A program made the position numbers and the translations under genes. Below the pieces are notes generated by a model. It was not told where the DNA came from and did not search any database. It was given only the letters and a program-made list of their open reading frames with translations. Below, piece by piece: positions 1 to 19,871 of a DNA stretch of 64,000 bases (its first letter is position 1; the number at the start of each line of letters is the position of its first letter). This stretch comes from Bullera alba. Taxonomy: Eukaryota; Basidiomycota; Tremellomycetes; Tremellales; Bulleraceae. The stretch lies in NCBI GenBank assembly GCA_001600095.1, contig BCIX01000001.1:3869198-3933197 (forward strand). Direction: 5' to 3'.

Positions 1-516
1 GGTTGCCGGACGGAGGACCTGGGATGGTCCGTGCGTTGGTGGTGGAGAAACCGACTGCAATATTGTCATGTGGCTTCACACCCGAAGAGCTGCGCTTGCC
101 GACTTGTAAGTTGTCCCTTGCAAGGGCTGTGCTGGGTGTGTACTCACGAAATTCTAGATGGCTCTCTCGCTCACGAGGATGCATTCTCTCCGCTGGCAAC
201 TACCTGCTCAATGTGCGGCAAGGAACCTCATGAGAAGTTATGCCTCACTTGTCCGCCGACATCAATCCCCCATCCGCGTCACGATCATCCGCCAAAATTG
301 GTCAACAATCCAGATGGTATTTGTCCCGTGTGCGTGGTAGAGGTCGCCCCCACGGGCATGCCGACGTGGGAATCTTGCGCATGTGGTATGAGCACGGACT
401 ACCTCCTGCAGCGGCTGAAGCGGAGTACCAATCTGGTGGTGAATACGGAAAGTATAGAGGAGGATCTGCACGCTAGAGGTAGGAAGGTTGCTGCCGAACG
501 AGGACGAACCATGTAA
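1..516 (+). CDS. C-terminal part of a Cys-rich (probable zinc-binding) protein, 5' truncated by window edge
   Basis: Two exons are visible: an open frame from the window edge to about 105, an intron at 106-157 (GTAAGT-like donor, CTCAC branch, TTCTAG acceptor), then an exon ending at the TGTAA stop at 514-516. The joined protein has paired cysteines spaced like zinc knuckles: CSMC, then CLTC, then CPVC, then a CAC pair. A basic C-terminal tail follows. This looks like a zinc-binding module, but I do not recognise the family, and the N-terminal part lies outside the window. The frame continues smoothly across the splice, which supports a real gene rather than a chance ORF. Function is unknown; the metal-binding role is inferred only from the cysteine spacing. 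Confidence 0.6.
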   Translation, partial: GCRTEDLGWSVRWWWRNRLQYCHVASHPKSCACRLVSCPLQGLCWVCTHEILDGSLAHEDAFSPLATTCSMCGKEPHEKLCLTCPPTSIPHPRHDHPPKLVNNPDGICPVCVVEVAPTGMPTWESCACGMSTDYLLQRLKRSTNLVVNTESIEEDLHARGRKVAAERGRTM

Positions 517-655
517 CGTCGAGATCAGCGGGACGACGAGCCATGAGACGATTCACGCCACAAGATAACGAGGATGAGAACGGACAATACTCCTGAACGC
601 GGAATGCATATAATCGTAGTACAGTCCCTGTGGAACTGCTCCGCCCTGATCACTG
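517..655. other. Short convergent intergenic gap
   Basis: This gap lies between the plus-strand partial gene and the minus-strand oxidase. It probably holds the two 3' UTRs. No further feature is seen. Confidence 0.4.
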
Positions 656-2301
656 TTATGTCTGATCATGCCGCCATCCTGTCACTTCCGAGAGATCTTT
701 AGGCCGTAGCCCACCCCGTCCAGTCCCGTTTGGATCTCCGGCACCGGGTCTCCAGCGCCACAGATGCTTGAGATCATGTGACAGCTGGGAAGTGGTGACT
801 GCTTCAGCAACCGATCTTGGCGAAGGGGTCAGGGGAGAGGGCGTACTCACCTTGCCCTCTATCAGATCCGAAACATAATTGCCGACGATGGGCAACATCT
901 TGAAAGTGTGACCCGAATCCCCAGTTGCTAGGACCAACCCTTTCCAAGCTGGATGCTCGCATAACAGCCAGTTTGCATCTTGAGTATCGGTACACCAACA
1001 CATGCCTTGTCGGATCAACTCCCTCCCCTCAAACTGCGGGATACACTTCTTGATGAGGCGTTTGATGTCTTCGAGCCCTTCAGTCGGTATAGTGTCGGTA
1101 GGGTGCGATGCGTGGGATCTGGGAACGGACATGCGAACATCCTCCTTGAGGGGAAATGGTCTGGCGGGCTGGAGATGAGTGTACCCTGGGAACTCGTTAC
1201 ACAGCTTTACCAAGCGGCTCTCCGGTCTGGGCTCGAAGAAGAAGCCCTGTCCCCGTGTCAGGTCACCGCCTCTTCTCTGTCTTGAGTGGGGTATCACCCA
1301 CGTATTCGTTGTTGTACATCGTTGGTACGCTCCGCCACGATTCGGCTTCTTCCTCCGTTAACTGGAGATGGGCGTATATCCAGGCCTGAGACACAGTTGT
1401 AGCGGCCTGCAATACACCCCACCCGGTTACTCTACTCACCTTGGACTCGCACTGCCCTTGCAAGTCTATTAAGACCGGCGACCAGGCGCCTGACGCCATG
1501 ACGACCACGTCCGCCTTCCACTCGGTGCCATCGGCGGTCTTGACTCCAGTACATCTTCTTCCATCTGGCGACAAGAGTAAAGAGGAGAACGTTCCTGATG
1601 TTCCAGTGCTATACTTAACCCCAAGCCGTCTGCACTCTGTGGCCACTGCATCAAGAGCATCGCGAGCAGCTACCCATCCGCCATCACTGCACCATAGCCC
1701 TCTCCAGCCCTGCTAGTCTGGTCAACAGCCATCACGAGACTCATGCCTAAGACCAACCTCAATGTCCGCAGAAGCCAGATGAGGAGCCTTGCGCTTTATA
1801 GCTTCGGCACCGTTGAGCCATTCAACATCCGTCCGGCCTAATGCTCTCATCTTGTCAAACTTCCTCCGTAAGGCTCTGCACCGTTCATTGTCCCCAGTTG
1901 TCAGGTCCATCTACCCAAAAGTCAGTCGTCCTCATAGTTGGAGGAGGTGAATTCCATCACCTTCCCAACGTTGTGGGCGAAAGGCTTGAACAGATCATCG
2001 CCGGTCCACGCGTCCCAGGCTTTGTCGCTCGCTCCGCCAAAGAGGCCGACATTATCTGCACCCGCGATCTTACCATTGATCAGCAGGAGCATGATGAAAG
2101 ACCACTATCTGATCTCACCTTATTCAGATCGTTACCTGCTGAATCGGCTGAAGGGCTATCCCATACGTCCAACACCCTGATATTGGTGAATCCTCTCCTG
2201 GCGAGGTGCAAGGCAGTAGAGGAGCCCATTGTGCCTCCTCCGCCCACAATGAGGATAGCATCCCCCTTGGAAGCCAGTGCCCCTGAAGAAAGCCGAGTCA
2301 T
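656..2301 (-). CDS. FAD-dependent fructosyl amino acid oxidase (amadoriase-like)
   Basis: The predicted protein has 441 residues from seven exons (2301-2119, 2068-1961, 1910-1758, 1712-1440, 1385-1302, 1246-851, 784-656), whose lengths sum to a multiple of three. The N-terminus has a dinucleotide-binding loop (ILIVGGGGTMGSS, about residues 16-28) followed by AGNDLNK, a family hallmark. Towards the C-terminus come FFFEP, the MCWCTDT segment, and LATGDSGHTFKMLP, which closes the FAD site in amadoriases. Known members oxidise Amadori products (fructosyl amino acids) to glucosone, amine and H2O2; saccharopine or pipecolate oxidases are related alternatives. The start is placed at MTRLSS, just before the Rossmann fold. 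The protein ends RHDQT, so the C-terminal peroxisomal SKL-type signal common in fungal members is not seen. It is divergent from the epimerase-like gene at 2830. Confidence 0.88.
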
Positions 2302-2829
2302 GGCTTGATAGAGTGATCGGTACTCAGGTTGGACCAACCAAGAGATCGGATTCTCACAACATGTTGGCAAGACATCTGCAGGGGGTTAGTCGTAGCTCGA
2401 TAGCAGCGGATGTTTTGCTTGGCTGATGACTCCAGCAATTGACGTTCGGAGTTGGCCGATGAGCTCAGGATTGCACTGGTAGGATCTTGAGGAGGAGTAA
2501 GAGTGGTCTACATGTTGACAGGTGCATATATGGATCAGCTGCGTCGAGAGTGCTGCGAGATAGCTTCGTGCACCTGGCATAGCTGCTGTACCGTAGTCGA
2601 CCAGCGTCAAGCAGACTTGAAAGACGAGAACCGCGGTGGTTTGCGTGAAGCGATGGAAGCCTGTAGGATGACGTCAAGCCAGCGTGCTGGTAAGCCAAAG
2701 TGGAGGTTGTCCATGACTCCACGACGCGGAGAACAAGCTGTCCCTAGCTGTCCTCTCATCTTGACTCTGTATCTCTCACTTCATCGACACACATTCAGAA
2801 CATATATATATATATATATATAAATCAAA
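2302..2829. promoter_or_regulatory. Shared divergent promoter between oxidase and epimerase-like genes
   Basis: This 528-bp region separates two divergently transcribed genes, so it should hold both promoters. On the plus-strand side a 20-bp TA tract lies directly upstream of the next gene's 5' exon and could act as a TATA-like element. An everted CCGCGG at 2631-2636 is a possible zinc-cluster contact. The small ORFs here do not look coding. Confidence 0.5.
2802..2821. repeat. (TA)n microsatellite / TATA-like tract
   Basis: An uninterrupted alternating A/T run ends about nine bases before the split start codon of the plus-strand gene. It could be a TATA-type promoter element or simply a microsatellite within the 5' UTR. 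Confidence 0.8.
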
Positions 2830-4080
2830 AGTGAGTTATTCCATGTGCGCTCTTGAGTGGTAGCTCATTATCCTCTTCAACAGTGTCTAAGTCTGCGTCT
2901 TCCGCCTCTGACCGCTCCATCTTCTTGACCGGAGCCACAGGATACGTCGGCGGATCATACCTGCAAATCCTGCTCTCCCTCCCCCAAACCGCAAAGAAAA
3001 TCACCACTCTGGTCAGGAGTGGAGAGAAAGCGAAACTGCTCGAGAGACTACCAGGGGTGGAGCCTGTCGTCGGCAGCTTTGACGACTTGGATCTATTGAC
3101 CCGTTTGGCCGCGGAGCATGATGTGACGATCGAGACTGCGGATTCGGACAACCCGGAGTTGATGGACGCTCTGCTCAAAGGTTTCGAGAAGAGACATGCC
3201 CAGGGTCTCAAAACGGACTTCATCCATGTTTCTGGTACGGGAACACTGGTCGACGAGGCCAAGGGAGAATACCCAACAGACACAGTGAGTCAAACAGTAC
3301 TCCAATCAGTCATTAGCGGCTTGTACACCATACTGACATGCCCAGATCTACACTGATGGTGAACCAAAACTCCCCAATGTGAATCATATCAGCACTCTGC
3401 CCGAATCCGCTTTCCACCGCAAAATCGATCTCGCCATCGTTGCGGCCGACAAGAAGGGCTGGTGTAACAGCTACATCATTCTGCCCGGGACCATCTGGGG
3501 CGACGCCCAGGGCGAGATTTTCGACAAGGGTATCGCCAACCTTCACTCGAAGCAGATCCCTCAGCAGGCCCAAGCGAGTATCGACCGGGGCAAGGCTGGC
3601 ATGGTGGGCAAGGGTGAGTGACTGGCTTTCTGCTTACAGGTGACGTGGTTTACTGAGCTGACGAGACGTCTAGGCTTGAACGTGTGGCCACACGTCCATA
3701 TCGAGGATGTCGCTTCACAATTCGAGACAGTGTACACTGCCTCCTTAGACGGCAAGGCAGAGCACGGCGAGAAGGGCTACTTCTTCGCCACTTCGGGTGA
3801 ATACCGACTTTTGGAGGCCACCCAGGCGATCGGCGAGACACTGGCCAAGAACGGCTTAAGCAAGACTGCCGACGTGGACTCGTTCTCCGAGGATGAGATC
3901 ACCAATATCTATTCCGCGCTGGAGAAGATTGGTGGAAGCAAGTATTACTCTGGAACCAACTCGAGAGCAGAATCGGCTCAGGCCACAGCTCTAGGTTGGT
4001 CTCCCAAACACACCAGCGTAGAAGAGTTCTACAAGTACTGCCGCGATGAGACGGAGCGATTGGGCAAGCAGTCCAAGTAG
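2830..4080 (+). CDS. NAD(P)-binding epimerase/dehydratase-like protein with intron-split start codon
   Basis: The predicted protein has 358 residues. No usable in-frame ATG exists upstream of the Rossmann motif in genomic DNA. Removing a consensus 53-bp intron (GTGAGT at 2831, CAACAG ending at 2883) joins A2830 to T2884-G2885 and creates ATG in a strong context (TCAAAATG). The mature frame then reads MSKSASSAS... followed by the nucleotide-binding motif TGATGYVG (about residues 14-21). Further introns lie at 3285-3345 and 3614-3673, and the exon sum is divisible by three. Later segments YIILPGTIWG and HVEDVA-like HIEDVA resemble extended-SDR/NmrA-type epimerase families. The substrate is unknown and catalysis is not assured. 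The gene is divergent from the amadoriase and convergent with the zinc-cluster regulator. Confidence 0.82.
2831..2883 (+). other. Intron interrupting the initiator ATG
   Basis: The intron runs from GTGAGT to CAACAG, is 53 bp long and has phase 1. It separates A from TG of the start codon. Its length and ends match the other introns of the window. Confidence 0.75.
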
Positions 4081-4138
4081 AGTTCGCTTGACCCATGTAC
4101 AGCATGCATATATGCATAGATACCAGGAGATAGCGAGA

Positions 4139-6829
4139 CTATTGACCGGTGGGGATGACCTGAATGAATTGGACTTGCGAATACTCCAGAAAAGTCAGTG
4201 CCGATCACTTCATCCGGATCTCGACGCAGACTCACCATGCTCCACCAATCCCAGACACTGTCTCCGAGCTCTTCGGGTGACGTACTGGCATTGAATAAAG
4301 CTAGGATAGTCCTAAGCACCTTGCCGCGCTGAGACGAGGTCAGCAAAACTCGACAGCAAAATTCAACGACGGCTCCAAGCCACTTACCATGGCTTCACCA
4401 TTCGACGCAAGATACTCTATGGGTATACTATGGCCAAATGTCAACCTCTGAACGCCGGTAGATCTGCAGTCACACACCTCGACAATGTCTCGTATGCTTT
4501 CTTTGCTATCGTCTCCCTCTGCGATCTGAGGTCTTCTTCAGGATTGAGCGCGGTGCGGAAATCAAGCTGAACATCGTCAGCGAATACCTCCGAGCAGAGC
4601 TAGGAAGTGCACTCACCAGGGCAAACTCGGCGCACATAGCGGTGATGAAGATGTTGGCTTGCTGAATGCCCGCAGTCGCAGCGGAATCGGGGGTAGTGTT
4701 GAGAGTCACGTTGATAGCCTTGGACTTTCCATCCGGACCAATGGTCGTTCGCTTCGCCCGCAAGTCTACTGGCAAGCTGTCCGTAATGGACTGCAGCCTC
4801 GATACAGCATGTTGGACCCATTGGAGCAATGCCAGTGGATCCTGACTCGCCGTCGGGTCGTTGAGCAGCGTGCGATGGCGAAGTTGACATTCTCCCAGGA
4901 TGCGGAATATCTGGACCACGGCAATAAATCCCGCGATATAGTTTGTGAACCCGCCCGCTGTGGAGGAGCTGGATGGCATTACGCCGGTAGATGTGATCCG
5001 CTCGTCTTCAACGTCGAGAGGGAGTGGCGGGACTCCTTCGTGATTATTGAACAGCATATTGCCTCCGTTCATGACGTTTGTCCTGTGAAACCGTCAGCCA
5101 GAGGGTGCATGTCTCGTGCGAGTCTGGCTCACTTGTCTGTTGAATAGACCTGCCAGAAGATCCGCCGGCCGACTTCTATATCGATCAATGAAGTCGCCTG
5201 TGCTGCTTCGACCTGGTTCAGATGCAAGGTGTAGATGATCCGCTGGGCGTCGCTGAACAGGACACTCGTGAGATCGGGCCGATTTGTGGCTTGACTGGAA
5301 AGGATATCCCTGAGCCATTCAAAATCAGTGGATGTCCACTGACGTCAGATAGCGCTACTGACATGGCCGTAGAAGCGGCGAGGATGAGACTCGGTCTGCT
5401 CTGATATTCAAGTTGTATGCGTCGACTGGCCTTCTGACATTGCTGTAATAGTGCCAGGAGTCTTTCTCGCGAGAAATCGCTCGACATGACGTTTATTGGG
5501 CATTGGCAGATTCTGTACGGTCTTCGATCAGCATTTTCGCGATTCCATGTCGAGAGGCTTACGTGTAAGTCACTAGATTACGGTTAGCGAATCTCCAGGC
5601 GGACCGAAATACTCACCAATACTAAAGAGCAACGCCCGGAAAGGTTCGTCCCTCTGATCCCGCCGATGCAGCACATCCATGGCAAAAGTCGGCTTGTGTA
5701 CGAGTGGGACGAGGGAATGCTGGTGCCGCATCCAGAGGGAGAAGAAGAAACAAAACTCGGACCAACTGCCTATGCTCTCGACCTGAGGTGCCGGAGGTGC
5801 ATCTGGTAGCGCACTACTGACATTTAGCTCATTGAGTGATCCCGATTTATCATGTACTCACTTGAATAGCTCTTGCGGTACGATCTGCGGTTGTTGCCCA
5901 AAGCTCCGACTACCAATCTCGACTTGACTGACGTTGGAAACCTCTCCGGTGCCTGGCCTCTGACGAGCAGGCATGTTGTTGTCGAAACTGACATGACTTT
6001 GGCCCCCAGCCGAGAATGCGGGCGAAGGCCCAGTGAGTGGTGAGGGTCCAGTCCGCTGAGCCATGTGAGACGGTGGTGTGGTGTAATCGAAGGAAGGGCG
6101 ACGACTATATACCCCGTGCGTCCACTCTCCGAAGGGGTAGTGGTAATCTGCGGCTTCAAAGGTCATCCTAGCAGAACCGAATATCGAATCTTTGGGTGGA
6201 CCCCAGAAATGAGATTGAGCATTGACATCGTCGCTTTGGTGTATATTATTGTCAGCAGGGGTGAAGTGACCAATGTCAGAGTAGTCTGTTGAGTCGTTTC
6301 GGGCGGATGATCGAGGCGGGGGAGGGGGAGGATAAGAATCGGAATGTGTGATGGATGACAAGGGGATGGCGGGTGAACGAGAATCTCCAACTGGACCACT
6401 GAGTAGCCGTTCTCTGCTAGGTCCACTGCTTGACGGTGGTGAGATGGGCCGAGAAGTGGATCTTCGTTCGGAGGGACTGCGAGTGGCCTTCGACTTGTTT
6501 GCTTTCCTACAGATGATGTCAGCTGGTTCCAATTCACTTCGGTATGGTGACTTACCCTAATGGCCGACCTGAGCGTTTGAACGAGTAGTCGAACGTGCAA
6601 TCGTGACCTGCTCTGTGACACCGACGACAGGGAGCCTTGCGAGAACCAGTTGAGCTCCCTTCCTCGTTCTCCGGTGGCAGACACTTGACCTGGACGATGA
6701 TCAATGCTATATCCCTCACACTGTTCGTTTAAATCTTACCTTGAGCACTCTGCACCGGTCACAGGTTGCAGTCTGCTGCCCACCGCTCGCCGCCAGAGCC
6801 TCGCTCTCCTTTATTGTTACAGCTGGCAT
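4139..6829 (-). CDS. Zn2Cys6 fungal transcription factor with fungal_trans middle domain
   Basis: The start ATG is at 6829-6827 (MPAVTIKES). The first two exons join to give a zinc cluster, CDRCRVLKVKC ... CRRCHRAGHDC (about residues 21-60), with a long loop between the third and fourth cysteines. A Ser/Pro-rich linker follows, then a fungal_trans-like homology region: WSEFCFFFSLWMRH, later DIEVGRRIFWQ (the family's RRxFW signature) and helical repeats to the end. At least ten exons are needed, including a 10-nt microexon at 5563-5572. The most likely stop is the TAG at 4141-4139 after the final splice. Proteins of this type bind CGG-containing sites and often control neighbouring catabolic or metabolite genes. 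It is divergent from the 2OG dioxygenase and shares its promoter. Confidence 0.85.
5563..5572 (-). other. 10-nt microexon inside the Zn2Cys6 regulator
   Basis: Between introns 5573-5616 and 5513-5562, both with good donors and acceptors on the minus strand, only ten bases remain (TGACTTACAC). Including them keeps the frame from the upstream exon ending in FSI to the downstream exon beginning ICQCPINV. Confidence 0.6.
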
Positions 6830-7358
6830 GGCGGCAGTCGTCAGGGAGTTCAGGCCGTTCAGGTGTGGGAAGATAAGATAGCGTTGGAGGAAATCGACCG
6901 AGGTGAGTGGTGACCGTTTGGGCGTATCAGAAACCGGGCGACGACCCGACGACCGATGAAACGGAACCAATTGGGAGTTGGGAGACTACCTTATGACAAG
7001 GCTTAACGATACATGTGTTGTATTGTTGTCATTTGAGATGGCGAGATCACCATGCCCTATCAAGCAAACTGCGCCTCAAGGTCCAAGCAATTGCTCGCAA
7101 TTCCTGCAAATCAAGTCTCCCGCAAATCAATGTGCAAACCCGCAAACGGAGTGTCCATTCCCAAACTCTGAAGCCGCCTCGAACGGCGAAGCGGCTCCGG
7201 TCCCGTCGGTCAGCTGATATGAGGACGACCTTTGTGCGGGCCGGTCCAGCGTCGATCTGATCAAGCGGTGAGGGGTCAGTATATCCTATGTCCTGTAGAT
7301 GATCCCCTTCGAGCTTCCCATTTCCTCCCATGACCCGCATTCCATCTCTCCCATCGCA
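6830..7358. promoter_or_regulatory. Shared divergent promoter with CGG repeats
   Basis: This region lies between the divergent zinc-cluster regulator and the 2OG dioxygenase. Positions 7184-7199 read CGG-N5-CGG overlapping CGG-N2-CCG. These triplets are the usual contacts of Zn2Cys6 proteins, so autoregulation or control of the dioxygenase is plausible but inferred. An in-frame ATG at 7299 is an alternative start for the dioxygenase. Confidence 0.45.
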
Positions 7359-8174
7359 ATGACCAAACAGCCAATCTTCCAGCAACTACCTGAACCCTCT
7401 TCCAAGCAGAGGTTCGAACGCCAGGGTGTGATCATTGTCGATCAGCTGCTCCCACAAGATGAAATTGATCGCCTTCGCGATACGTTCACATCCCAGGTCG
7501 AAAGCGACAACTCGATGGGTCACAACGACAACCTACCCGACGACGATGTACTCCATCGCTACCCCCGATTCGTCCACCCCCATCGTCACCCAGACACGGC
7601 TTTCGGCAAGCTCGCACTTAGCTATCTTACCGATGGGCGGATCATCAAGATTGCCGAAGAGCTGATTGGTCCTGTTCACGGTGCTCAGACCATGTTCTAC
7701 TTCAAACCTCCAAAGGCCAGGGGTCAAGCCATGCATCAAGACAACTTCTTCCTAAAATCACACCCGGAAACCTGCCTGGCGGTGTGGATAGCGATAGACG
7801 ATGCGGATGGTGAGAACGGAGGGCTGGTCGTGATACCAGGGTCGCACAAGAACGAGATCCTTTGCCACGACAGGGCCGCCCCGGCCGATTCATTCTCGTC
7901 AAAGGAGATCCGTCTACCGGCAGACGCGACCAGGTACCAGACAGAGCTCAAGGCCGGCGACGCGTTATACTTTCATGGCGCTTTGGTACATGGTTCTAAG
8001 CCCAATACGAGCGATCGCTTCCGGCGAGCTCTCATCCTTCACTTCATCCCACAGTCCAGCACAGAGGTCGCTTGGTTCTATCAGCCGCTGATCGGCCGCG
8101 ACGGGCAAGAAGTCAGGATCACTGAGTCGGAGCTTGGAGGTCCTTGTGGTGAGGGATGGAGGTCCGAGGACTGA
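7359..8174 (+). CDS. Phytanoyl-CoA dioxygenase (PhyH)-family Fe(II)/2-oxoglutarate oxygenase
   Basis: This intronless frame encodes 271 residues from the ATG at 7359 (context CGCAATGACC). A start 20 codons upstream at 7299 is also open. The double-stranded beta-helix signatures are present: the HQD iron-binding motif in AMHQDNFF, the VVIPGSHKN turn that follows the metal site in PhyH proteins, the distal HG in FHGALVHGS, and an arginine shortly after (RFRRALILHF) for 2-oxoglutarate binding. Family members hydroxylate diverse small molecules, including lipids, natural products and halogenated or phosphonate compounds. The substrate cannot be told from sequence. Its place between a regulator and an ABC exporter suggests a metabolic role shared with its neighbours. 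It is the only gene of its segment without introns. Confidence 0.88.
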   Translation: MTKQPIFQQLPEPSSKQRFERQGVIIVDQLLPQDEIDRLRDTFTSQVESDNSMGHNDNLPDDDVLHRYPRFVHPHRHPDTAFGKLALSYLTDGRIIKIAEELIGPVHGAQTMFYFKPPKARGQAMHQDNFFLKSHPETCLAVWIAIDDADGENGGLVVIPGSHKNEILCHDRAAPADSFSSKEIRLPADATRYQTELKAGDALYFHGALVHGSKPNTSDRFRRALILHFIPQSSTEVAWFYQPLIGRDGQEVRITESELGGPCGEGWRSED

Positions 8175-8905
8175 TCTCGTTGCGCAATCCGGTATGGTTT
8201 TGGAAGACTTGGGTAGTATGTTCTCGAGAGCCAATTGTCATGTATCAATATAGCTCATGCCTCCGGGAGCTGTGATCGGCGGCAGGCCGCACCATACGGG
8301 GAAGCAGTACAGACAAGCTACTACACATTGGCCGCACCACCGAATCAGTGATCACTAGCATTTACTGTCACACGACACGGGTCGCAGAGGTGACCACATA
8401 CAGTTGGGGTCTTCTAGCTCACCACAGGCCGCATGTGTGTAAGTTAAGTTACTGCTGCAGCCAGCAGCTATGGCGGGCTGCGGCTAGCTAACGCCATGTC
8501 CACAGCTGCCTCGAGCTCAGCTGCTCAGCTGCTCTCGCATGATCCCGCAGATGCCCGCCCGTACGACCTGACGCCAAGTGGAGCGGGAGAACTCTTCGGT
8601 AACCAAAGTTGATCCATGCGCGCGCTACGCTATCCGCTCGCTCGTCTAACCCTCGTATGGTGGTGACGCTTTACTCCGAACAGTTTTACCATACAGCTGC
8701 ATCAGATTCAACCACCGCCGAGAAGTCGAGGAGGACTGCATGAACGGATCGTATACCCAGCTTACGGGTGAGGATCAGACGATACTCCGAGCAGACGAGC
8801 TTCAGATGTATCTCACGATCAAACATATATAACTCGGGCCATCATCGCTGGGATCGGCCACCCCTCAAGCTACCTCGTACACATCCTTCGAGAAGGCCTT
8901 CCAAC
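8175..8905. promoter_or_regulatory. Intergenic region upstream of the ABC exporter
   Basis: This 731-bp stretch lies between two plus-strand genes and holds the 3' end of the dioxygenase and the promoter of the exporter. It contains GC-rich CAGCAGCTATGGCGG-like stretches and short direct repeats of GCTGC/CAGCT. No gene is seen. Confidence 0.4.
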
Positions 8906-11900
8906 ATGGCATCACCCTCTCAGATCGAGAAGGGCGACAGGCGTTCCGATGAAGACCGACAACAAATCGACACAGTACAGCAGCCTTACATCCATTCGTC
9001 TGGCCTTCCTAACGCCCTCTACATCTTGTCCTTTGCACCTCCTGTCCCGTCACTCATACGACAACCAGCCAAGTTCTTCTCGCACCCATTGGTCCTTTAT
9101 ACCATCGGCGGACTCGCAGCACTGGTCGCGGGTCTGGGTTTGCCAGCCTTCGACATTGTAACAGGTTACTGGACCAATGGTATCAAGGATCGCAATGCTG
9201 CCCCCGAGGCCCTCATTGCTCGAGGTAGCCAAGCAGGGTGGATCATGACTATGGTCGGCGCAGTATTCGTCTTGGCGTACGGCACTTTTGTCGTTTGTTG
9301 TAAGTGATCTAGCAGTCGATGTACATTACACCGCTGACCCACGTCTAGTCACTATTGCTGGAGTGAAATTGTCCAACCTGGTTCGAGAGCAGTACCTCTC
9401 TGCCGTCATATCACAGGATCAAGCCTTCTTTGACCGAGTGGGATCCGGTGAGATCGCATCTCGGGCCAGTAAAGACATCGACTCAATCCGGACCGGCCTT
9501 GGAGAGAGGCTAGGCTACCTGATATGGGCTAGCAGTACCATCATTGCTGTCAGTACCATCAACCCGCGCATTTTGTAGTCTCAACTGACACTAGCTTAGG
9601 CCTTTGTGTCCGCCTTCGTCCACGTTCCAAGGCTAGCCGGAGTCCTCTTCGCCCTCATCCCTTTCACGATGGCCATTTTCATTGGCGTGGGCTGGTGGAC
9701 GGAAGCGATCGTTGTCAAGCGTGTGCCGATCGACGGCCAGCTGTCATCCTTCACGGAGCAACTTCTCTCATCGATCCGGATCGTCCACTCGTTCGACATG
9801 GGCAAGCCACTCCTACTCAAACTCGAAAACTCGATGCTCAAGCCGCTGAGGCGTTTGACGAGAAAGATTGCTCTGGTAAAAGCGCTTGAACAAGCCTCGG
9901 CATATGGCGCGGGATTCCTGGTCTACTCTCTGGCTTTCTGGTATGGATCGATCGAGGTCACCAAGGGGGCCGAGGTTGGCGACGTCTTGACGGTGAGTCC
10001 ATGCGTACTCATCTTCATTGATCAACTTACTCATCCTCTCCATAGACATTCTACAACTACGTCAACCTGTTCTTTGGATTCGCTACCATGGTTCCCCATC
10101 TCATCGCTACTACGAGCGCCATCTCGGCAATCGGTACTCTCCGACTGCAGATAGAACGAAAGCCTCCCATGGACGTACGAGACCCGCATGGTATCAAACT
10201 CGACCCCAAGACTGGGTGGGAACCATCATTCGAGCTCAAGAACGTCACTTTTGCATATCCGTCACGAGCCACTCAGAAAGCGTTAGACGATGTCAGCATT
10301 CACATCCAAGCCGGACGTTTCACTGCCTTGGCTGGTCCCAGCGGAAGTGGCAAGAGTACTCTCGCAGCCCTCCTAATGCGGATGTACGACCCGGAGACCG
10401 CCACTGTCATGACAGATGCCGACGACAAGATCCTTCAAGCCGTCGAGGAGATTTCCGAGCGGGAACCCAAGACCCGGTTCCACCAGCCAGGGGAAGCGGT
10501 CCAGGGGTCTGGCTCTGTGCTCTTCGCGGGTCATGACATCCGGGACCTCAACCTCAAATGGCTTCGATCTCAGGTTTCGGTTGTCCTCCAGAACCCTCAA
10601 CTGGTAAACGGCACAGTCTTTCACAACATCGCCATCGGCCTCACCAATACCAGTCTATACTACGATATCGACGCGTATACGCCAGAAGCTCTGGAAAAGC
10701 CAACCGGAACCATCAAGCAGGTCCTGGACCGAGTCGAGGAAGCGCTGAGGATCGCCCAAGCCTGGGACTTTGTTCAGGAACTGCCCGACGGACTTTGGAC
10801 CAAGGTATCTTCAGGTCGAACAGGTGCTCTCTCTGGTGGTCAGGTTCAACGTGTTGCTCTCGCACGAGCTTTGGTCCGACAGCCCAGGTGCTTGCTACTG
10901 GACGAAGCGACTTCCGCAGTCTCGGCCGACACTGAGCTACAGATCCAAGAGGCTTTAGCTGAAGAGCAACGTCGCCGAGGAATGACCCTCATCGTCATCG
11001 CTCATCGACTCTCCACCATCGCCGGCGCAAACGAGATCCTGGTCATGCGAGACGGTCGACTCATTCAGTCAGGAACGTATGACGAGCTTACCGACCCCAA
11101 CTGCCCAGACGCCACCTTCCGATCCATGGTAAACGCCACTTCAGTCGAGCAGCTCAAGCCAACTGAATCCGAGACATCATCTACCCAAGCTGGGTCTATT
11201 CACGAAATGGAGAATGGCAAGATGATCGCTGCACACAACGACAACGAGACCGACCCACTGCCACCCGCTTGGACTACCAGCTGGCAGGCTTTCAAACAGC
11301 TGAAATGGCTCATGTCAACCTGTATCGTTCTTGGTGTCATCTCAGGTGCTGCTCTGGTCATCGCTGCTTGGATACATGGTCGAGCGTTGAACTCTCTCAA
11401 CGACCCCAACTTCTCGATAATGCGACCTCAGGTCGACAGATGGGCCCTGTGGTTCTTGATCCTCGCCCTCGTTTCCTTTTGCATCATGCTCACCTATGTC
11501 TTTGGTTTGGAGGACTCTAGCGAGATCATCGTTTCTGATCTAAAAAGAGAATCCCTTCGAGCCCTTATCACCCACGACGTTCCCTTCTTCGAAAAGGCCA
11601 AAGAGGGTCCTGGTGGTCTCGCCGCTGCTGTCACCACCAACGCATCAGCCGTCGGCAACTTTGTCGGTCTTATCTTTGCTCAAGTGGTGATGAGTTGGTC
11701 CAATCTCCTCGCCACGCTCATCATGGCGTTCATCCTCGAATGGAGACTCGCCATCATGGTGCTGCCATCACTGTTCGTCTGTATCAGCGGAGCTTACATT
11801 AGCTTCAGGTGTCTCAAGGTCTTCGAAGGCGACATGGCAGGGGAGACTGATCGACAAGCCAACTTTGTCGCCGATTCCGTCAACTCGGTTCAGACTATCG

Positions 11901-13274
11901 CTTCGCTTACACGAGAGCAAGACATTATCGACGAGTACAGGAATACCTTTCTCTCTCGACCGCTCAACAGGCGATTCTTATTTGGTGGAAGTTTCGCCAT
12001 GGCCATGAGTCAGAGTGTGATCAACTTCTTCTCTGCCCTCATGTACTGGTGGGGCGCAAAGCAGCTCGCCGGGAACAAAGTCGTCAGTCAGGACGCAGCA
12101 TGAGATGACCGTATAGTCAGACTGACGTGACTACAGGGCTTCGCGAACCTCTTCACCGTCATCGAGGCGGTCGTGATCGCTGTCTACGTTTGTGCAAAGG
12201 TCCTCACATATGCCGGCGACTTCACTCGAATGTTCAACTCGATGCGAATCATACAGGCGAGTCAGACAAATGGTAGCGTGGGGACTGTATTGACTGTTCA
12301 CAGGGATGGATCGACGGCGCATCCTACAGGCGAGAGCACGACGACGATTCCTCCACGATCACTACCCGTCACGAGTCTACTATGGAAGGGATCGAGCTGT
12401 AAGTCGAGCTCTACCTCAGCAGGGAGCCGCAACTAACTTGAGTGCTAGACGTGATGTTGAGCTCCGATACCCAACCCGTCCCGATGTCCTGGCGCTCGAC
12501 AAAGTCAGCATCCGTTTGGAACCTGGCAAGGCCTACGCCTTTGCGGGAACATCCGGAGCTGGTAAAAGCAGTGAGTCGATTCGCACCTAATTTAGGACAA
12601 AAAGGCTGACCTTATCGGCAGGTATCCTCGCTATCCTACAACGATTCTACCAACCTACCGGTGGTGCTGTGCTTTTCGATGGCGAAGACATGCGTAATCT
12701 CTCCGTCAAGCGAACCAGAGCTGCCATGGGTTATGTCAGTCAGGAAGCGGTCTTGTTCGAGGGCACCGTTAGATGGAACTTGGTGGCCGGTATCGACGAT
12801 CCAGCAAGCGTGACGCAAGCCGCCATCGAAAAGGCGTGCGAGCAAGCGAGAATCCTGTCCTTCATCCAGTCCCTACCCGAAGGCTTTGAGACCGATTTGG
12901 GTATGAAGGGCAGCCGATTGAGTGGAGGTCAAAGACAGGTGAGCGAAGCGATCGACCCCAGTGCGAATTCACGCTGACCCTGTTCCCTATAGCGAATCTG
13001 CATAGCGCGAGCGTTGTTAAGACAGCCCAAAATCTTGTTACTGGACGAGGCCACGAGTGCTCTCGACCGAGAGAGTGAGGCGTATGTCCAGCAAGCTCTC
13101 GACAGCGCGTCACGTGGAAGGATGACCATCACCATCGGCCACCGACTGAGCGCCATCCGCAACGCCGATGCGATCTTTGTCATGGCCGCGGGTAAAGTGG
13201 TGGAAGTGGGGACGCATGACGATCTGGTGGAGGCTAAAGGCCGATACTTTGAACTGGTTCAAGCACAGCTATAA
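8906..13274 (+). CDS. Full-size ABCB-type ABC exporter (multidrug/Ste6-like)
   Basis: The predicted protein has 1319 residues from nine exons (8906-9299, 9349-9548, 9600-9992, 10046-12082, 12137-12256, 12304-12398, 12449-12570, 12622-12938, 12993-13274), and the sum is in frame. The architecture is TMD-NBD-TMD-NBD. NBD1 has Walker [10 protein letters not shown], signature LSGGQ and Walker [14 protein letters not shown]2 has [16 protein letters not shown] and [10 protein letters not shown] with an H-loop. Catalytic glutamates are present in both, so both ATP sites look competent. NBD1 carries an extra acidic segment of roughly 40 residues between Walker A and the Q-loop. The fifth intron (12257-12303) begins with GC. 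Likely a plasma-membrane exporter of hydrophobic compounds or a lipopeptide; the substrate is unknown. It lies next to two regulators and an oxygenase. Confidence 0.92.
12257..12303 (+). other. GC-AG intron in the ABC exporter
   Basis: The donor is CAG|GCGAGT and the acceptor TTCACAG, 47 bp. Only this splice joins the transmembrane segment ending RIIQ to GWIDG and keeps the frame into the second nucleotide-binding domain. Confidence 0.7.
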
Positions 13275-13529
13275 TCTGGAATGGAACGCAGAAGTGGTTA
13301 CGGCCGTAGAGGTGATGCTTGCATTTAGATGTATCGATGGACCATAGACAGAGCCGAATAATCAAATATAATCCAATGTATATCATAGCATCGCATCGAG
13401 CGAGGGATCGCACTGAGATACTCTCAAGCAGATCATGGGTTCGAGCTAATCTTATCTCGCGTACATCTCGAGCACCAGCTTAGAAGTGAAGTCTACATGC
13501 TGCTACAACAGCATGATGCAGTAGTGTGA
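13275..13529. other. Convergent intergenic spacer
   Basis: This region lies between the 3' ends of the ABC exporter and the tandem-cluster regulator. It is AT-rich and holds AATAAT/AATATAAT stretches that could serve polyadenylation. No gene is seen. Confidence 0.4.
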
Positions 13530-16453
13530 TCAGAATATCGGGAAGAACACGTCTCTCTTCCTCAAAAATTTCTCCCAATCCTTGTAATCCACACCATTGA
13601 ACTCTGCCCAATCGAGTTCGATGAGCCTTTGAAGGCTCTTCGGACACAGATGATACTGCTGTCGAAGAAGCTGCATCAAGTGACCAAGATGCTGACGACC
13701 GTTCGTGTCCGAGCATGCTTCTGCCCAAGAGAGCGGCAGGAGCAGACTGGCGCCAGTCAGTGAAATGTTGATGATAGAATTCGGGACAACGCCTACTCAC
13801 CCGGCACAATCGCCGTCAGAGATTGCCTTCTGAGTGAGGTCACAGATGATCTTGATCTTCTCACGTATCGCGGAGGTGTCGGAGAGCACTTTGTCGTTGA
13901 GGACGGTGTATAGGCAGAGGTCCATACTAGCCTGCAAAGATAGCGAATTGCGATGCACCCATGGATTCGTCTCAGTCTGGAAGGGGTCACGTTGGTAAGA
14001 TGCTCGCTCTCAGTGCACTGAAAGGACTTACCACGAGTTCTTTACGCATGCGTGGTGACGCCGCGAGGTATGCCTTTATCTTCTGGGTCACCGTAATTCT
14101 CTTCGTGTTGATTGCATCCCTGAACTGCCAATGCTTCGATTGGTACATGCGGACTACGTCGATGCTGACATAATCACGTGCGAGAAACGAGACCTGAGAA
14201 CCGCTCCGATCAGCACTAGCGTTGCGCCGTTGATCAGCGGCAGCACGGAGTATTCACCTTGGCGGCAGCATCTAAAGCCGTGCTGCCGATGTTGTCAACA
14301 AGCGCAATAACCTCGATTCGTGAATGGGACTCACTAGTTCCATCCGTATATGATTCTGATGCCATGTAAACTGTCTGTATGGTTGAACGGTCAGTAATCA
14401 CCCCTCAAGTCGTCTTTTCGACGAACCCGATTCTGTTTTCAGCCATGAGTTGTCCCAACTCAGTGTCCTGGGCTCGGCAAAGGTAGTCATGCAACCTGGA
14501 GCTTGATTAGATCACTGGTAGAGAATTTGTCGATCAGAGACGTACCCAGTATCTCGACGCACATGATCTGCTCTACTAAGAATCGCCTGATCTTCGTCGG
14601 ACTGGCAGCGATACACTGTTCGGAACCTCCCTTTTTCACCACCGTCTGCACGCCCAGTTCCACAATAGTCTGCCATTCAGGTTCTCCAATAAGCCGCTGC
14701 GTTTCGGGGCATCAGTCTACGTCTCATGCTAACGCCGGATCGGTCTTACTCACATCACGCGTGGCCAGAGCTAGTACACAGGCTAGTGTCATGTCCACCG
14801 AGGATTCGTCTTTGAGTATGAGATCCAGAATGTCGCATATCTTGAGTCGACGAGTCGTCTCATCTCTCACTTCCTGGCTGATGGATCTGAAGACATCGTC
14901 TTCGACAATAGGCCCGGAGCAGTTCAGCTTGATGCTAAGGTCGCAAGTTGCAAGACTGATCAACGATTCCCGAAACAGATCGTGCAAGATGTCCTCGTTG
15001 GCCGCCTTGACAAAGGCCAATGGCGTCAACATTGTCGTCCAGGGGTTCTCGTTCGGACTGCAAGGCACGACGACCAAAGATTTGACTGTTTCTGTGAAAA
15101 ATCTGCGAAACTGATGATTGTTAGGTCCTTTATACTGATACTGTATGAAACTCACCTGATGCCGGTGGTCGACCGACGGGAAGAAAGAATTGAATCGCTC
15201 TGGGCTCTGCATGACCTGTATCTGACTCTCGTATGCCTCCGATGATGGAACATCTGCGGGACTTTGGGGTGCCGAGGTCACAGCCGAGATATGCCCAGTG
15301 CTCTGCCCAGGGTTCTGCCCAGTGTTCTGCCCAGTGTTCTGCCCGACGTTCCCGACAGTGAAGAGATCACGAAAATCTCGAAGCCCGGAGCCCTCTTCTA
15401 TAGAGGTATCCTCGAGCTGTGTCGGGCTGTTGCTTGGCAGACTAAATATAGCACCAGGAGCGACCGGCTCTTCTGCGTATTTCAGGTTGTCCCAGAACGC
15501 CTGCAGAGGGTCGGGTGGGAAGACCTGATACCCTGTCACAGGTGGCGAGTAACGCGTGAAGAGCAAGGAGGGTGATAGTGGCGGCGGCGTCGTATGTGGG
15601 AACTGGTAGGGGATCAAAGCGTTGATGGCCGATTGCAAGTCGAACTCGCTGGTACTGTATATTCCGTTGAACACAGCTTGCGGATCGGGGTTTCCCGTTT
15701 GATGATTCTGCATTGGCTGGGGATGAGGGCCCATTGAGCTGAGACCCGGGACGAACTGGGGATGGACGGTCGAGGCAGTCCCTCCGACGGGATGATCAAG
15801 CGTTCCCATCGAAGCGGATACTCCGACAGTCTGGGCGAATTGTGCCATTGCGCTAGACTCCCCTGCCACGTCTGCGTGTCGAAAGCCCACAGGTTGAGCG
15901 TGCATTGTTCCAACGAAGGAGCCGTTTGAGTGCCGATGTCCGTTAGATATGGCCTCGGTGGTCGTAGACGTCGGGGCCAGTTGCGGCTGGTACTCCGGGA
16001 AGTAGTCAGGCTGCGGGTCCTCATCTGGAGCAGGGTCGGTGGATGATGTAGAGTTCTTTTCCTTGCTGACGGTCCATTTGCACTGTGAAGGATGAGCAGA
16101 CGCCGAACGGGTGGTTCTGCTACTCACAGCCTCTGGTTCGCCTTTTCTAATACAGTTGCCACAGACTGGTCGCGACTCATCGCATCTCACCCTTCGCTCC
16201 TTGCAGTGCTGGCAGCCGTTACGCGAGCGTCGATGAAAACGGCGGATCCTCCCGTCATCGTCATTGATCGAGGTCGTGTAGTCGCACTGACGGGCAATAA
16301 GTAGGCAGTTCGATTCGATCCTCGTATGCGTACCTGTTCGCCCTTGCGACTGCAGAGAGTACATGAAGGCTTGCGCTGGTCACACTTGACTTTACACTTG
16401 CGACAGTAGGTGCAGGGCCGTGGCCGATCGCTTGCAGGGATGTCGCTGGGCAT
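13530..16453 (-). CDS. Transcription factor with two tandem Zn2Cys6 clusters and a fungal_trans_2-like domain
   Basis: The start is MPSDIPASDRP at 16453. Exon 1 plus the first codon of exon 2 form cluster 1, C-X2-C-X6-C-X6-C-X2-C-X6-C (CTYC...KVKC...SCTLC...C). Exon 2 plus the first codon of exon 3 form cluster 2 with spacing C-X2-C-X6-C-X6-C-X2-C-X8-C (CQHC...RVRC...CGNC...C). In both, a phase-0 intron (16287-16333 and 16083-16127) sits exactly before the codon for the last cysteine. A Ser/Pro/Gln-rich linker with GQNTG repeats follows, then a helical region from about 15110 (FRRFFTETVKSLVVVP, NPWTTMLTPLAFVKAA) typical of fungal_trans_2 regulators. The C-terminus WEKFLRKRDVFFPIF ends at 13530. 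Two clusters in one polypeptide are rare; targets are unknown. Confidence 0.85.
15293..15352 (-). repeat. 12-bp tandem repeats encoding GQNTG-type units
   Basis: About five imperfect copies of a 12-bp unit (GCCCAGTGTTCT on the plus strand) encode GQNT/GQNP/GQST in the linker of the tandem-cluster regulator. In-frame slippage is expected to make this segment length-variable. Confidence 0.8.
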
Positions 16454-17151: not shown

Positions 17152-18397
17152 TCATGACCTGGGAATACGTAGGGATAGGTCTGGATCTGTCTGGATAGGT
17201 AAGTAAAGTACGTGACTGATACGTGGGGTAACTTACCGGGGGTAACTTACCGGAGGGTACCGGTAAGTTAATATTTAATCTAGCTCTATCTAGCTCCGCT
17301 GCGAGGCTCTTGCTGGCTCTTGCAACACCCAGCCGGCTTGTATAAGTTACCAGTCTTGTGCCTTGTCAAGTTACCCGAGCACGGATGTAACCTTGGCATA
17401 TAGTCGATCTACGGCTGTAAGTTACCGTCAATCGAGCGTTGAACGTTGAACGTTGAGCTTGCGACAGCGACAGTAACTCAGTGACGATGGGTGTATGCCT
17501 GTGCATGCGATCTATGCAGACAGCTGTTTAGGACATGTGTTTCGCCCAAAGATCTGCGTGTTGCCATGACTTTTAAGTTACATATGCTCTTGAGGCCTTG
17601 AGCAGCCTTGAGCCATCGCCTGCCATCGCAGACTTCGCAATGGATCGGCCAGAGCCTGCCAGAGCTGGCCAGAGGGACACGGGAGGACACGCGGTGCGCC
17701 CTGGTGCGCCGGTGACTTGCGGCGACTGCAAAGCACGGACCCGAAAGTCCAGGCGCTAACCGCGGGCTTTCGTGTTTTCGTTCACTGGAATCAACGGGTC
17801 CTGTTCCTGAAATGGCGTGGGAGCAGAGGGAGTGGGAAAAGTCATCTGCGCTTAACCCTGAGATTCCAGGGAAAGGATGATGATGATGACCCAAACTTCA
17901 TGTCGTCGCATGAAATGGGTGCGAGTTTTAACTCTTTCGCCTTTGCGTCTCCCCCTGCCCTTTGGGAAGTTTCAATTGCACTCACTGGCTGTCACCTGCT
18001 GTTGGTCCGTATGATGACTATCGCCACTGTACACGTTCTTTATATCAGACCCGGCTTCGCTACTACTGTCCATAACCTGTCATCCTACGACACCCATACC
18101 CACGGCGATCAGCTCGATCGACAGTCGGACCTTGGAGATCGTGCAGCAAACCGGTGATTCAACTGGCTTGTCTTCAAGGATCAAAGCTAGGAAAGGCTCG
18201 ACAACGCCATAGAGAGCGCCATTTTGGCACTTCGCACTGTCAAGCCGTACCGCGACTTTGGGCTATAGGCGTCAAGTCTATTCCAGTGGCTCAGTCTCGA
18301 TTGTTCCATCCATCTTTCGAACATCGCCTACCTATCGATAACGACAAGAAAACTCGCAATCGGTGATATACTGGAAACAACGCCAAAGACAGAGGTC

Positions 18398-18421
18398 ATG
18401 CTATCGGCTTCCTCGCCGTGA
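18398..18421 (+). promoter_or_regulatory. Seven-codon upstream ORF before the bZIP start
   Basis: An ATG at 18398 opens a seven-codon frame ending in TGA at 18421, 78 bp before the main start. If it lies in the transcript, it could restrain translation of the bZIP factor. Confidence 0.4.
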
Positions 18422-18498
18422 AAACACATTACACAGTTGACCTTAGGTCAAACGTCACTCGGCCTGAGACGCTCGATCCCATCGAAGCCGATCATTCA

Positions 18499-19871
18499 AT
18501 GTCCAGCGTGTCTGGTTCTTCTTCGAGGGAGAGGACTGCAAACCCGACTTTTGACGGGAGGAGCTCTGTCGAGAAGGCGAATTCAGGACGTCCCTCATTG
18601 ATCTCCCCAGACGCAAGGAAAAGAGAGCGTTCACTCTCCGGCTCATCACAATCGTCACAATCGCGACCGACAAGGCCGGCAATGACAGTTACTGGCCCTT
18701 CAGATGAGCCAGTACCAGTGTCTGGTGGTCGCCACATGGGTACCAGCGGCCCGGGTCCCCACGACAATCAGAATCTACAGCACGACCAGGGCTATGGCGA
18801 GGAGCTTCATCAGGACCAGAGAATCGATATGAGGGAAAGAGAAATGGGCGGATTATCACCGAGTCCGTCTCATCAAAATGGTCATACCGGCTCGAGTCGA
18901 TCATCTGGCGACGATCACTTGACACTGCGACGGCGCGAGGCGAATCGACTAGCAGCACAACGCTTCAGAAGCCGAAAGAAAGGGTATCAGGACAGTCTGG
19001 AGGAGAAAGTACGGCAATTGGAAGACGAGAAGGAGGCATTACACCGGCGTCTGAGCGAGGTCACTGGCATCCCGCATCACCCTACTCCAAGAGTCTCGTT
19101 CGGTCTCCCCACAGAAGACGAAGGCCGCCAAGCAGCCGCCGATCGCCCGGGCAACGGCGGTCGTCAATCGAGCTACAACGGTGACATTGCCACCTCTCCT
19201 GAGCGTCAGACTCACTCGCAAGGTCAAGACCCCGATGTCCGGATTGCTGGGCTGGAAGCAGCCAACAGGCGATTGCAAGACGAGCTTCGGAACTCTCACG
19301 AGGAGGCTGAGGCGCTCCGGCACGAGGTTGACAGGTGGCGTCGTTGGGATCAGGAACTCATGGAAAGGGAGACTCGAATGGAGCAAGAGAAATCATTTTT
19401 CCATTCCGACACCCGAGTAAGTAACCCCATCTTCATCCATTACTTGAACTAACCGCTAACAATTGTCAGCAGACCAAGACACTCGACGTCAGGCCCGCTC
19501 CGCCACTCAGATTGCACTCTCAGCCGTTGTCGATACAGACTTCAACTTATCCCCCACCTTCGCCCTCATTCCCCTTCACTGGCCAGCTTCCCAGCGGCAA
19601 ACCCCTCTCTGCCGGTCACACACATCCTGCGGCATACAGCTCTGCTGACGGCTTCGGCACATTGTCCGGCAGACCACCGCTGTCACCTGGAATCCGCCTC
19701 CCCCCAATCATTTTGCCACCACTTCAAGCGTCCTTGGAGTTGGACAGATCGCCTGTGATCCCTTCGGTCCTCTTGGGAAGCTCTTTTCTGCCCAAGAACG
19801 GAGATCCGCGGTCTCGGACAGGACAGCAGCACGATCTTCCACCTGCACGTGCGCATAGCAGGTCTCCTTAA
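18499..19871 (+). CDS. bZIP transcription factor
   Basis: Two exons (18499-19416 and 19470-19871) encode about 439 residues. The start MSSVSGSSS at 18499 is the first good in-frame ATG. The N-terminal 130 residues are Ser/Gly-rich and disordered. A bZIP follows at about residues 137-190: basic region RREANRLAAQRFRSRKK, with the N-x7-R DNA-contact pattern, then a leucine-repeat coiled coil starting YQDSLEEKVRQLE. A second charged coiled-coil stretch lies before the intron (LEAANRRLQDELRN...). The C-terminal exon is Pro/Ser-rich. The gene probably has a long 5' leader with a short upstream ORF. The bZIP subfamily is not clear to me. Confidence 0.88.

What the first reader, a model, noticed from the sequence alone, without database searches (positions are those of the whole stretch)
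16083..16453. Two tandem Zn2Cys6 clusters, each interrupted by an intron at the same place
The regulator has two complete six-cysteine clusters about 20 residues apart. In both, a phase-0 intron of 45-47 bp falls exactly before the codon of the sixth cysteine. Matching intron position and phase points to an intragenic exon duplication. Almost all fungal zinc-cluster proteins have one cluster and bind as dimers; a tandem pair in one chain could read two CGG half-sites as a monomer.
Basis: partly seen in the sequence, partly recalled or inferred. Interest (0 to 1): 0.8.

Follow-up and report, generated by a model that had tools for sequence, protein, structure and literature searches.

The report
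Fungal regulator with two zinc clusters
A basidiomycete fungus carries a gene regulator with two zinc-bound DNA-binding modules in a row instead of the usual one; annotated relatives have only the second, so the first looks like an add-on, and probably not a copy of its neighbour.

Summary
On the minus strand a predicted 11-exon gene (16453-13528, 800 aa) encodes two complete Zn2Cys6 clusters 23 residues apart, then a Fungal_trans_2 (PF11951) domain. Introns 16333-16287 and 16127-16083 are both phase 0, directly before the sixth cysteine codon.

A tandem pair in one chain is the best gene model. Intragenic duplication is not supported: cluster 1 scores better against five other clusters of this genome than against cluster 2, and the two introns show no likeness. 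Four named homologues (three Kwoniella, one Naganishia) have only the cluster matching cluster 2, so cluster 1 looks like a lineage-specific gain. The same intron site occurs in what appears to be another PF11951 gene (C4:694601), so it can be shared without a copy inside this gene. Another gene of this genome (L021) does look like a true in-gene cluster duplication.

Exon 2 (159 nt, phase 0-0) is skippable: the product would carry one complete hybrid cluster. No RNA evidence exists here for any splice form. Two-cluster proteins, discussed among PF11951 proteins, are on record in ascomycetes, so this is a new variant of a known kind.

The parts
13528..16453 (-). Predicted gene, 11 exons, 800 aa: two Zn2Cys6 clusters plus Fungal_trans_2 (PF11951, residues 404-792)
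   Evidence: Exon model; Pfam; colinear to the last residues with Kwoniella P0002 and P0003. No RNA evidence.
16334..16453 (-). Exon 1 (120 nt): start codon and Cys1-Cys5 of cluster 1 (best solved match HAP1, with an extra Cys)
16287..16333 (-). Intron 1, 47 nt, phase 0, GTACGC..GTCAG, directly before Cys6 of cluster 1
16128..16286 (-). Exon 2 (159 nt, phase 0-0): Cys6 of cluster 1, 23-residue linker ending RRFHRRSRNG, Cys1-Cys5 of cluster 2
16083..16127 (-). Intron 2, 45 nt, phase 0, GTGAGT..CACAG, directly before Cys6 of cluster 2
15156..16082 (-). Exon 3 (927 nt): Cys6 of cluster 2 and a spacer that is poorly conserved in the relatives
13528..15110 (-). Exons 4-11: Fungal_trans_2 (PF11951) region
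16362..16364 (-). Out-of-frame ATG inside exon 1 that, if intron 1 is retained, opens a frame through exon 2 with cluster 2 but not cluster 1
   Evidence: open frame 14724-16379 minus; codon checked; use as a start is inference
17227..17426 (.). Group of GGTAAsTTACC-like palindromes about 0.8-1 kb upstream of the ATG; possible operator, unproven

Best explanation
The gene is an orthologue of a Tremellomycete PF11951-type zinc-cluster regulator whose ancestral DNA-binding module is cluster 2 (HRRSRNGC..). In this lineage the 5' end gained a second module, cluster 1, from another zinc-cluster gene rather than by copying cluster 2; the acquired piece carried an intron at the same site. The product is one chain with two unlike zinc clusters joined by a 23-residue linker. 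Shown: both clusters, the junctions as sequence, the single cluster in annotated relatives, and the unlikeness of the two clusters. Inferred: that exons 1 and 2 are spliced together in vivo, that both clusters bind zinc and DNA, and that cluster 1 broadens or lengthens the site read by cluster 2.
For: Complete clusters and phase-0 junctions. Two Zn_clus stretches and PF11951 in one spliced frame. P0002, P0003, P0004 and P0005 match cluster 2 and much of the downstream region but have one cluster. The ranking of cluster 1 against other clusters and the unlike introns favour a different source. In the genome search no other place matched the protein beyond its cluster region. Exon 1 follows an in-frame stop, and six open frames tested between it and the bZIP frame at 18367 match no Pfam family.
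Against: No transcript evidence. A 28-residue domain gives weak trees: cluster 1 joined a large group that includes cluster 2, with support 0.000, so kinship is not excluded. None of the five clusters nearest to cluster 1 has its intron at this site, so no donor with the intron was found. The nearest relative P0001 begins inside intron 1 and is silent on exon 1. Donor 1 (GTACGC) departs from GTRAGT at two positions, as does intron 6 and more than the other eight. A crude codon score did not favour exon 1's frame.
Confidence: 0.6

Rival explanations
1. Intragenic exon duplication: an exon carrying Cys1-Cys5 and its intron was copied within the gene, and the two copies then diverged.
For: Same intron site and phase in both clusters. 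That exact site is otherwise seen in 1 of 25 other resolved interrupted clusters, so independent coincidence is unlikely. The tree attaches cluster 1 next to a large group that includes cluster 2, though with no support.
Against: Cluster 2 only ties for sixth best match of cluster 1 among 50; the cluster-2 profile ranks cluster 1 twentieth of 29; identity is 13 of 35 residues with flanks and 40 of 81 bases ungapped; intron insides are no more alike than shuffles. The third gene with this site (C4:694601) also seems to be a PF11951 gene, so the site may be old in the family.
Confidence: 0.17
2. The tandem pair is old in this gene, and annotators of Kwoniella and Naganishia missed the first short exon.
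For: Those four proteins start only 29 to 73 residues before the cluster, and short first exons can be missed.
Against: All four models have a start of their own and no cluster 1. 0 of the 18 distinct database proteins found show two clusters by pattern: 17 show one, P0001 is uninformative.
Confidence: 0.13
3. Exon 1 is a leader or alternative first exon: the working protein has cluster 2 alone, made from the inner ATG at 16364 when intron 1 is retained.
For: The frame is open from 16379 through intron 1, exon 2, introns 2 and 3 to 14724. Donor 1 is not strong. Intron retention in Zn2Cys6 transcripts is documented in A. nidulans (PMC8396895, passages).
Against: Exon 1 keeps a cluster over Pfam's cut-off, which suggests selection on its protein. 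The inner ATG is not the first.
Confidence: 0.1

Closest known systems
Tremellomycete PF11951 zinc-cluster regulators (Kwoniella IAT40_003055, IAU59_002936, L201_006994)
   Same: Cluster 2, its HRRSRNGC lead-in and the downstream region; P0002 and P0003 are colinear to the C-terminus; PF11951 was confirmed here in P0002
   Different: One cluster only, by annotation; P0004's model departs near its C-terminus
CCG_02279 and CCM_00582 (Tolypocladium guangdongense and Cordyceps militaris; PMC6471507, section 3.3 read)
   Same: Two C6 zinc domains in one predicted protein, described in the paper's passage on DUF3468 (PF11951) proteins
   Different: Ascomycetes; their patterns are C-2-C-6-C-5-C-2-C-6-C and C-2-C-6-C-6-C-2-C-6-C, whereas here cluster 2 has eight residues before Cys6. 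Sequences were not compared, and that these two carry DUF3468 is implied by the passage, not stated.
L021 gene of the same genome (C3:1010998-1011291) and relatives P0019, P0020
   Same: Two adjacent clusters in one frame
   Different: Its clusters are each other's best match (19 of 33 residues with flanks), no intron inside, 31-residue gap, no PF11951 found in P0019 or P0020
HAP1/CYP1 DNA-binding domain (1pyc, 1hwt)
   Same: Best solved match of cluster 1, E 3e-5
   Different: Cys in cluster 1 where HAP1 has Arg (alignment); HAP1 has one cluster (recalled)

Membership tests
Zn2Cys6 (PF00172) cluster, cluster 1 | Six cysteines C-x2-C-x6-C-x6-C-x2-C-x6-C over the gathering score | tested here: met
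   25.7 bits unspliced against cut-off 21; spliced motif; extra Cys at position 7, the only such case among 48 genome clusters compared
Zn2Cys6 (PF00172) cluster, cluster 2 | Six cysteines over the gathering score | tested here: met
   28.5 bits; C5-C6 gap of eight residues
Fungal_trans_2 (PF11951) regulator family | C-terminal PF11951 domain over cut-off | tested here: met
   34 bits against 21, residues 404-792
Classical GAL4-type coiled-coil dimer | Linker and coiled coil directly after the cluster | tested here: inconclusive
   By eye the sequence after cluster 2 is Ser/Asp/Pro-rich; no coiled-coil program was run
Intragenic cluster duplication | The two clusters are each other's nearest relatives | tested here: not met
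   control L021 meets it; short domain, tree unsupported
Monomer reading two half-sites | In vitro binding of a two-triplet site by one chain | not testable with these tools
   needs protein and binding-site selection

The most novel reading that the evidence does not exclude
The introns make a built-in switch of DNA-binding identity. Exon 2 is a symmetric cassette (159 nt, phase 0-0) cut at the same codon of both clusters. Including it gives two unlike clusters. Skipping it fuses Cys1-Cys5 of cluster 1 to Cys6 in exon 3, one complete HAP1-like hybrid cluster (Zn_clus 29.0 bits), on the same regulatory domain. Retaining intron 1 can give cluster 2 alone from the inner ATG. One gene could thus make three DNA-binding versions.
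Probability: 0.1. Interest if true: 0.75.

Novelty: new variant of a known kind. Interest (0 to 1): 0.42.

Why it matters
Zinc-cluster proteins are the largest regulator class of ascomycetes such as A. nidulans and nearly all there carry one cluster. A regulator that gained a second, unlike cluster while annotated relatives kept one is a natural before-and-after pair for asking how a new DNA-binding module changes the sites a regulator reads. The intron placement also gives a simple RNA test for splicing that swaps DNA-binding modules.

Tried and rejected
A codon score trained on a few frames of the window was uninformative: exon 1's own frame scored lowest of its three forward frames and exon 2, which carries the conserved cluster 2, also scored negative. 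The region search 1-100 was meant to reach cluster-1 relatives; it returned no protein with two clusters. The DNA comparison of the two L021 clusters was out of register and is not used. Literature searches for two-cluster proteins listed 6, 7, 12, 22 and 2 papers. I opened passages of eight papers: PMC7295025 (a P. ostreatus septin-domain protein with two cluster domains), PMC10305253 (it cites an Alternaria factor with two Zn2Cys6 domains), PMC6471507, PMC4192604, PMC12997857, PMC6767844 and PMC10512309, which were about other matters, and PMC8396895, which came. The search on intron position listed two papers, not opened; one search listed one. The rest I saw as listings only. CGG-like triplets around 17227-17270 were considered as sites for the tandem protein; nothing here can test that. 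The first hand-made exon models had incomplete or one-base-wrong later junctions, corrected; exons 1-3 did not change.

Rows dropped: one search examined 63 of the 73 genome matches (25 intact, 27 with one resolved intron, 11 unresolved); the other ten were eight matches below the cut-off and two second halves of matches already listed. The 11 unresolved could hold further cases of the site. One search used 48 of the 52 resolved genome clusters; four with doubtful splicing were left out. One search used 24 of those 48, picked by hand, plus three relatives, HAP1 and GAL4; four of its 29 (cluster 2 and the three relatives) also belong to the profile. The introns come from a simple GT..AG scoring and were not all checked by eye.

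Full report
Where it is. The window lies at C1:3869198-3933197 of an unnamed 19.4-Mb genome in seven contigs. The closest named protein matches are Kwoniella and Naganishia, both Tremellomycetes, so the host is probably one too; this is inference.

The observation. On the minus strand the ATG at 16453 opens exon 1 (16453-16334). Removing 16333-16287 and 16127-16083 gives MPSDIPASDRPRPCTYCRKCKVKCDQRKPSCTLCSRKGEQ|CDYTTSINDDDGRIRRFHRRSRNGCQHCKERRVRCDESRPVCGNCIRKGEPEA|CKWTVSK (bars mark the introns). Both introns are phase 0 and both directly precede the sixth cysteine. The whole model has 11 exons and 800 residues, with two Zn_clus stretches (48.6 bits together) and Fungal_trans_2 at residues 404-792 (34 bits). 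The cluster-1 exon on its own is over Pfam's cut-off. There is no RNA evidence; the model rests on splice signals, open frames and colinearity with relatives.

Relatives. Two protein searches with this protein (14 hits, 12, 18 distinct proteins) contain no two-cluster protein: 17 have one cluster by pattern, and P0001, an unnamed protein 90% identical over 79% of the query, starts within intron 1 and cannot speak to exon 1. Kwoniella P0002, P0003, P0004 and Naganishia P0005 match cluster 2 and its lead-in RFHRRSRNGC; P0002 and P0003 align to the last residues, while the models of P0004 and P0005 depart towards the C-terminus. The conserved module is therefore cluster 2, and cluster 1 is the extra one. 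The caveat is that these are annotated proteins, and I could not read the DNA upstream of their genes.

Is cluster 1 a copy of cluster 2? Pairwise scoring against 50 other clusters (47 of this genome, three of relatives) places five clusters from other genes ahead of cluster 2, which ties for sixth. A profile of cluster 2 and four relatives ranks cluster 1 twentieth of 29. The tree in that call attaches cluster 1 beside a large group that includes cluster 2, but with support 0.000, so it decides nothing. Identity is 13 of 35 residues with flanks and 40 of 81 bases. The insides of the two introns are no more alike than shuffles (310 of 1000 reach the score). Against solved structures cluster 1 matches HAP1/CYP1 best and cluster 2 matches RSC30 and Cep3. 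By contrast the two clusters of L021, another tandem gene in this genome, are each other's best match, and the pair is kept in P0019 and P0020, the only two proteins found for it. The method can therefore see a duplication where there is one, although an old duplication in so short a domain could be erased.

The shared intron. Among 63 cluster matches examined, 27 had one resolved internal intron. Three of these lie directly before Cys6 in phase 0: both clusters here and C4:694601. The last seems to belong to a PF11951 gene, judging by a family match about 2 kb downstream (C4:696817). C1:1152104, also followed by PF11951 matches, has its intron one codon earlier. The coincidence is real (one of 25 other interrupted clusters), but the site recurs in the family, and a cluster taken from a related gene with that intron explains it as well as an internal copy. 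Against this, none of the five clusters nearest to cluster 1 showed its intron at this site, so no donor was identified.

Function. Cluster 2 with PF11951 is presumably the ancestral working unit. Cluster 1 keeps the six ligands and most basic residues but has Cys where 25 of 48 clusters in this genome have Arg, inside the stretch that in GAL4 contacts DNA (recalled), so its binding may be weakened or altered. My best account is an add-on module that extends or changes site choice; one chain reading two triplets is possible but untested. Because both introns sit at the same codon, skipping exon 2 would leave one complete hybrid cluster in frame; I keep this as the boldest open reading.

Known or new. 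Two-cluster proteins are rare but recorded. A. nidulans has 332 Zn2Cys6 domains against 331 such factors (PMC8396895, passages). CCG_02279 and CCM_00582 have two clusters and are described among DUF3468 (PF11951) proteins (PMC6471507, section 3.3). I therefore file this as a new variant of a known kind.

Noticed in passing
L021 (G000:C3:1010998-1011291): A second two-cluster gene in the same genome, with no intron inside the clusters; its clusters are each other's nearest match and the pair persists in P0019 and P0020. It is a better example of duplication within a gene than the window's pair.
   Followed up: partly
window 17227-17426: GGTAAsTTACC palindromes: two exact copies 14 bp apart, plus four with one or two mismatches within 200 bp, upstream of the regulator; five exact places in the whole genome (reversed-pattern control: 8); 15 in the window at up to two mismatches against 6.9 expected.
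   Followed up: partly
window 10046-13274: ABC transporter frames (ABC_membrane and ABC_tran found in 10046-12103; later frames not scanned) on the plus strand, ending about 250 bases from the regulator's 3' end.
   Followed up: no
window 18367-19452: bZIP regulator frame on the plus strand, divergent from the zinc-cluster gene and sharing the roughly 2-kb upstream region.
   Followed up: no
window 6570-6641: Weak partial Zn_clus match (18.1 bits, below cut-off) on the minus strand.
   Followed up: no
window 16127-16083 and 15155-15111: Introns 2 and 3 are each 45 nt with no in-frame stop, so their retention keeps the frame; P0001 is such a read-through.
   Followed up: no
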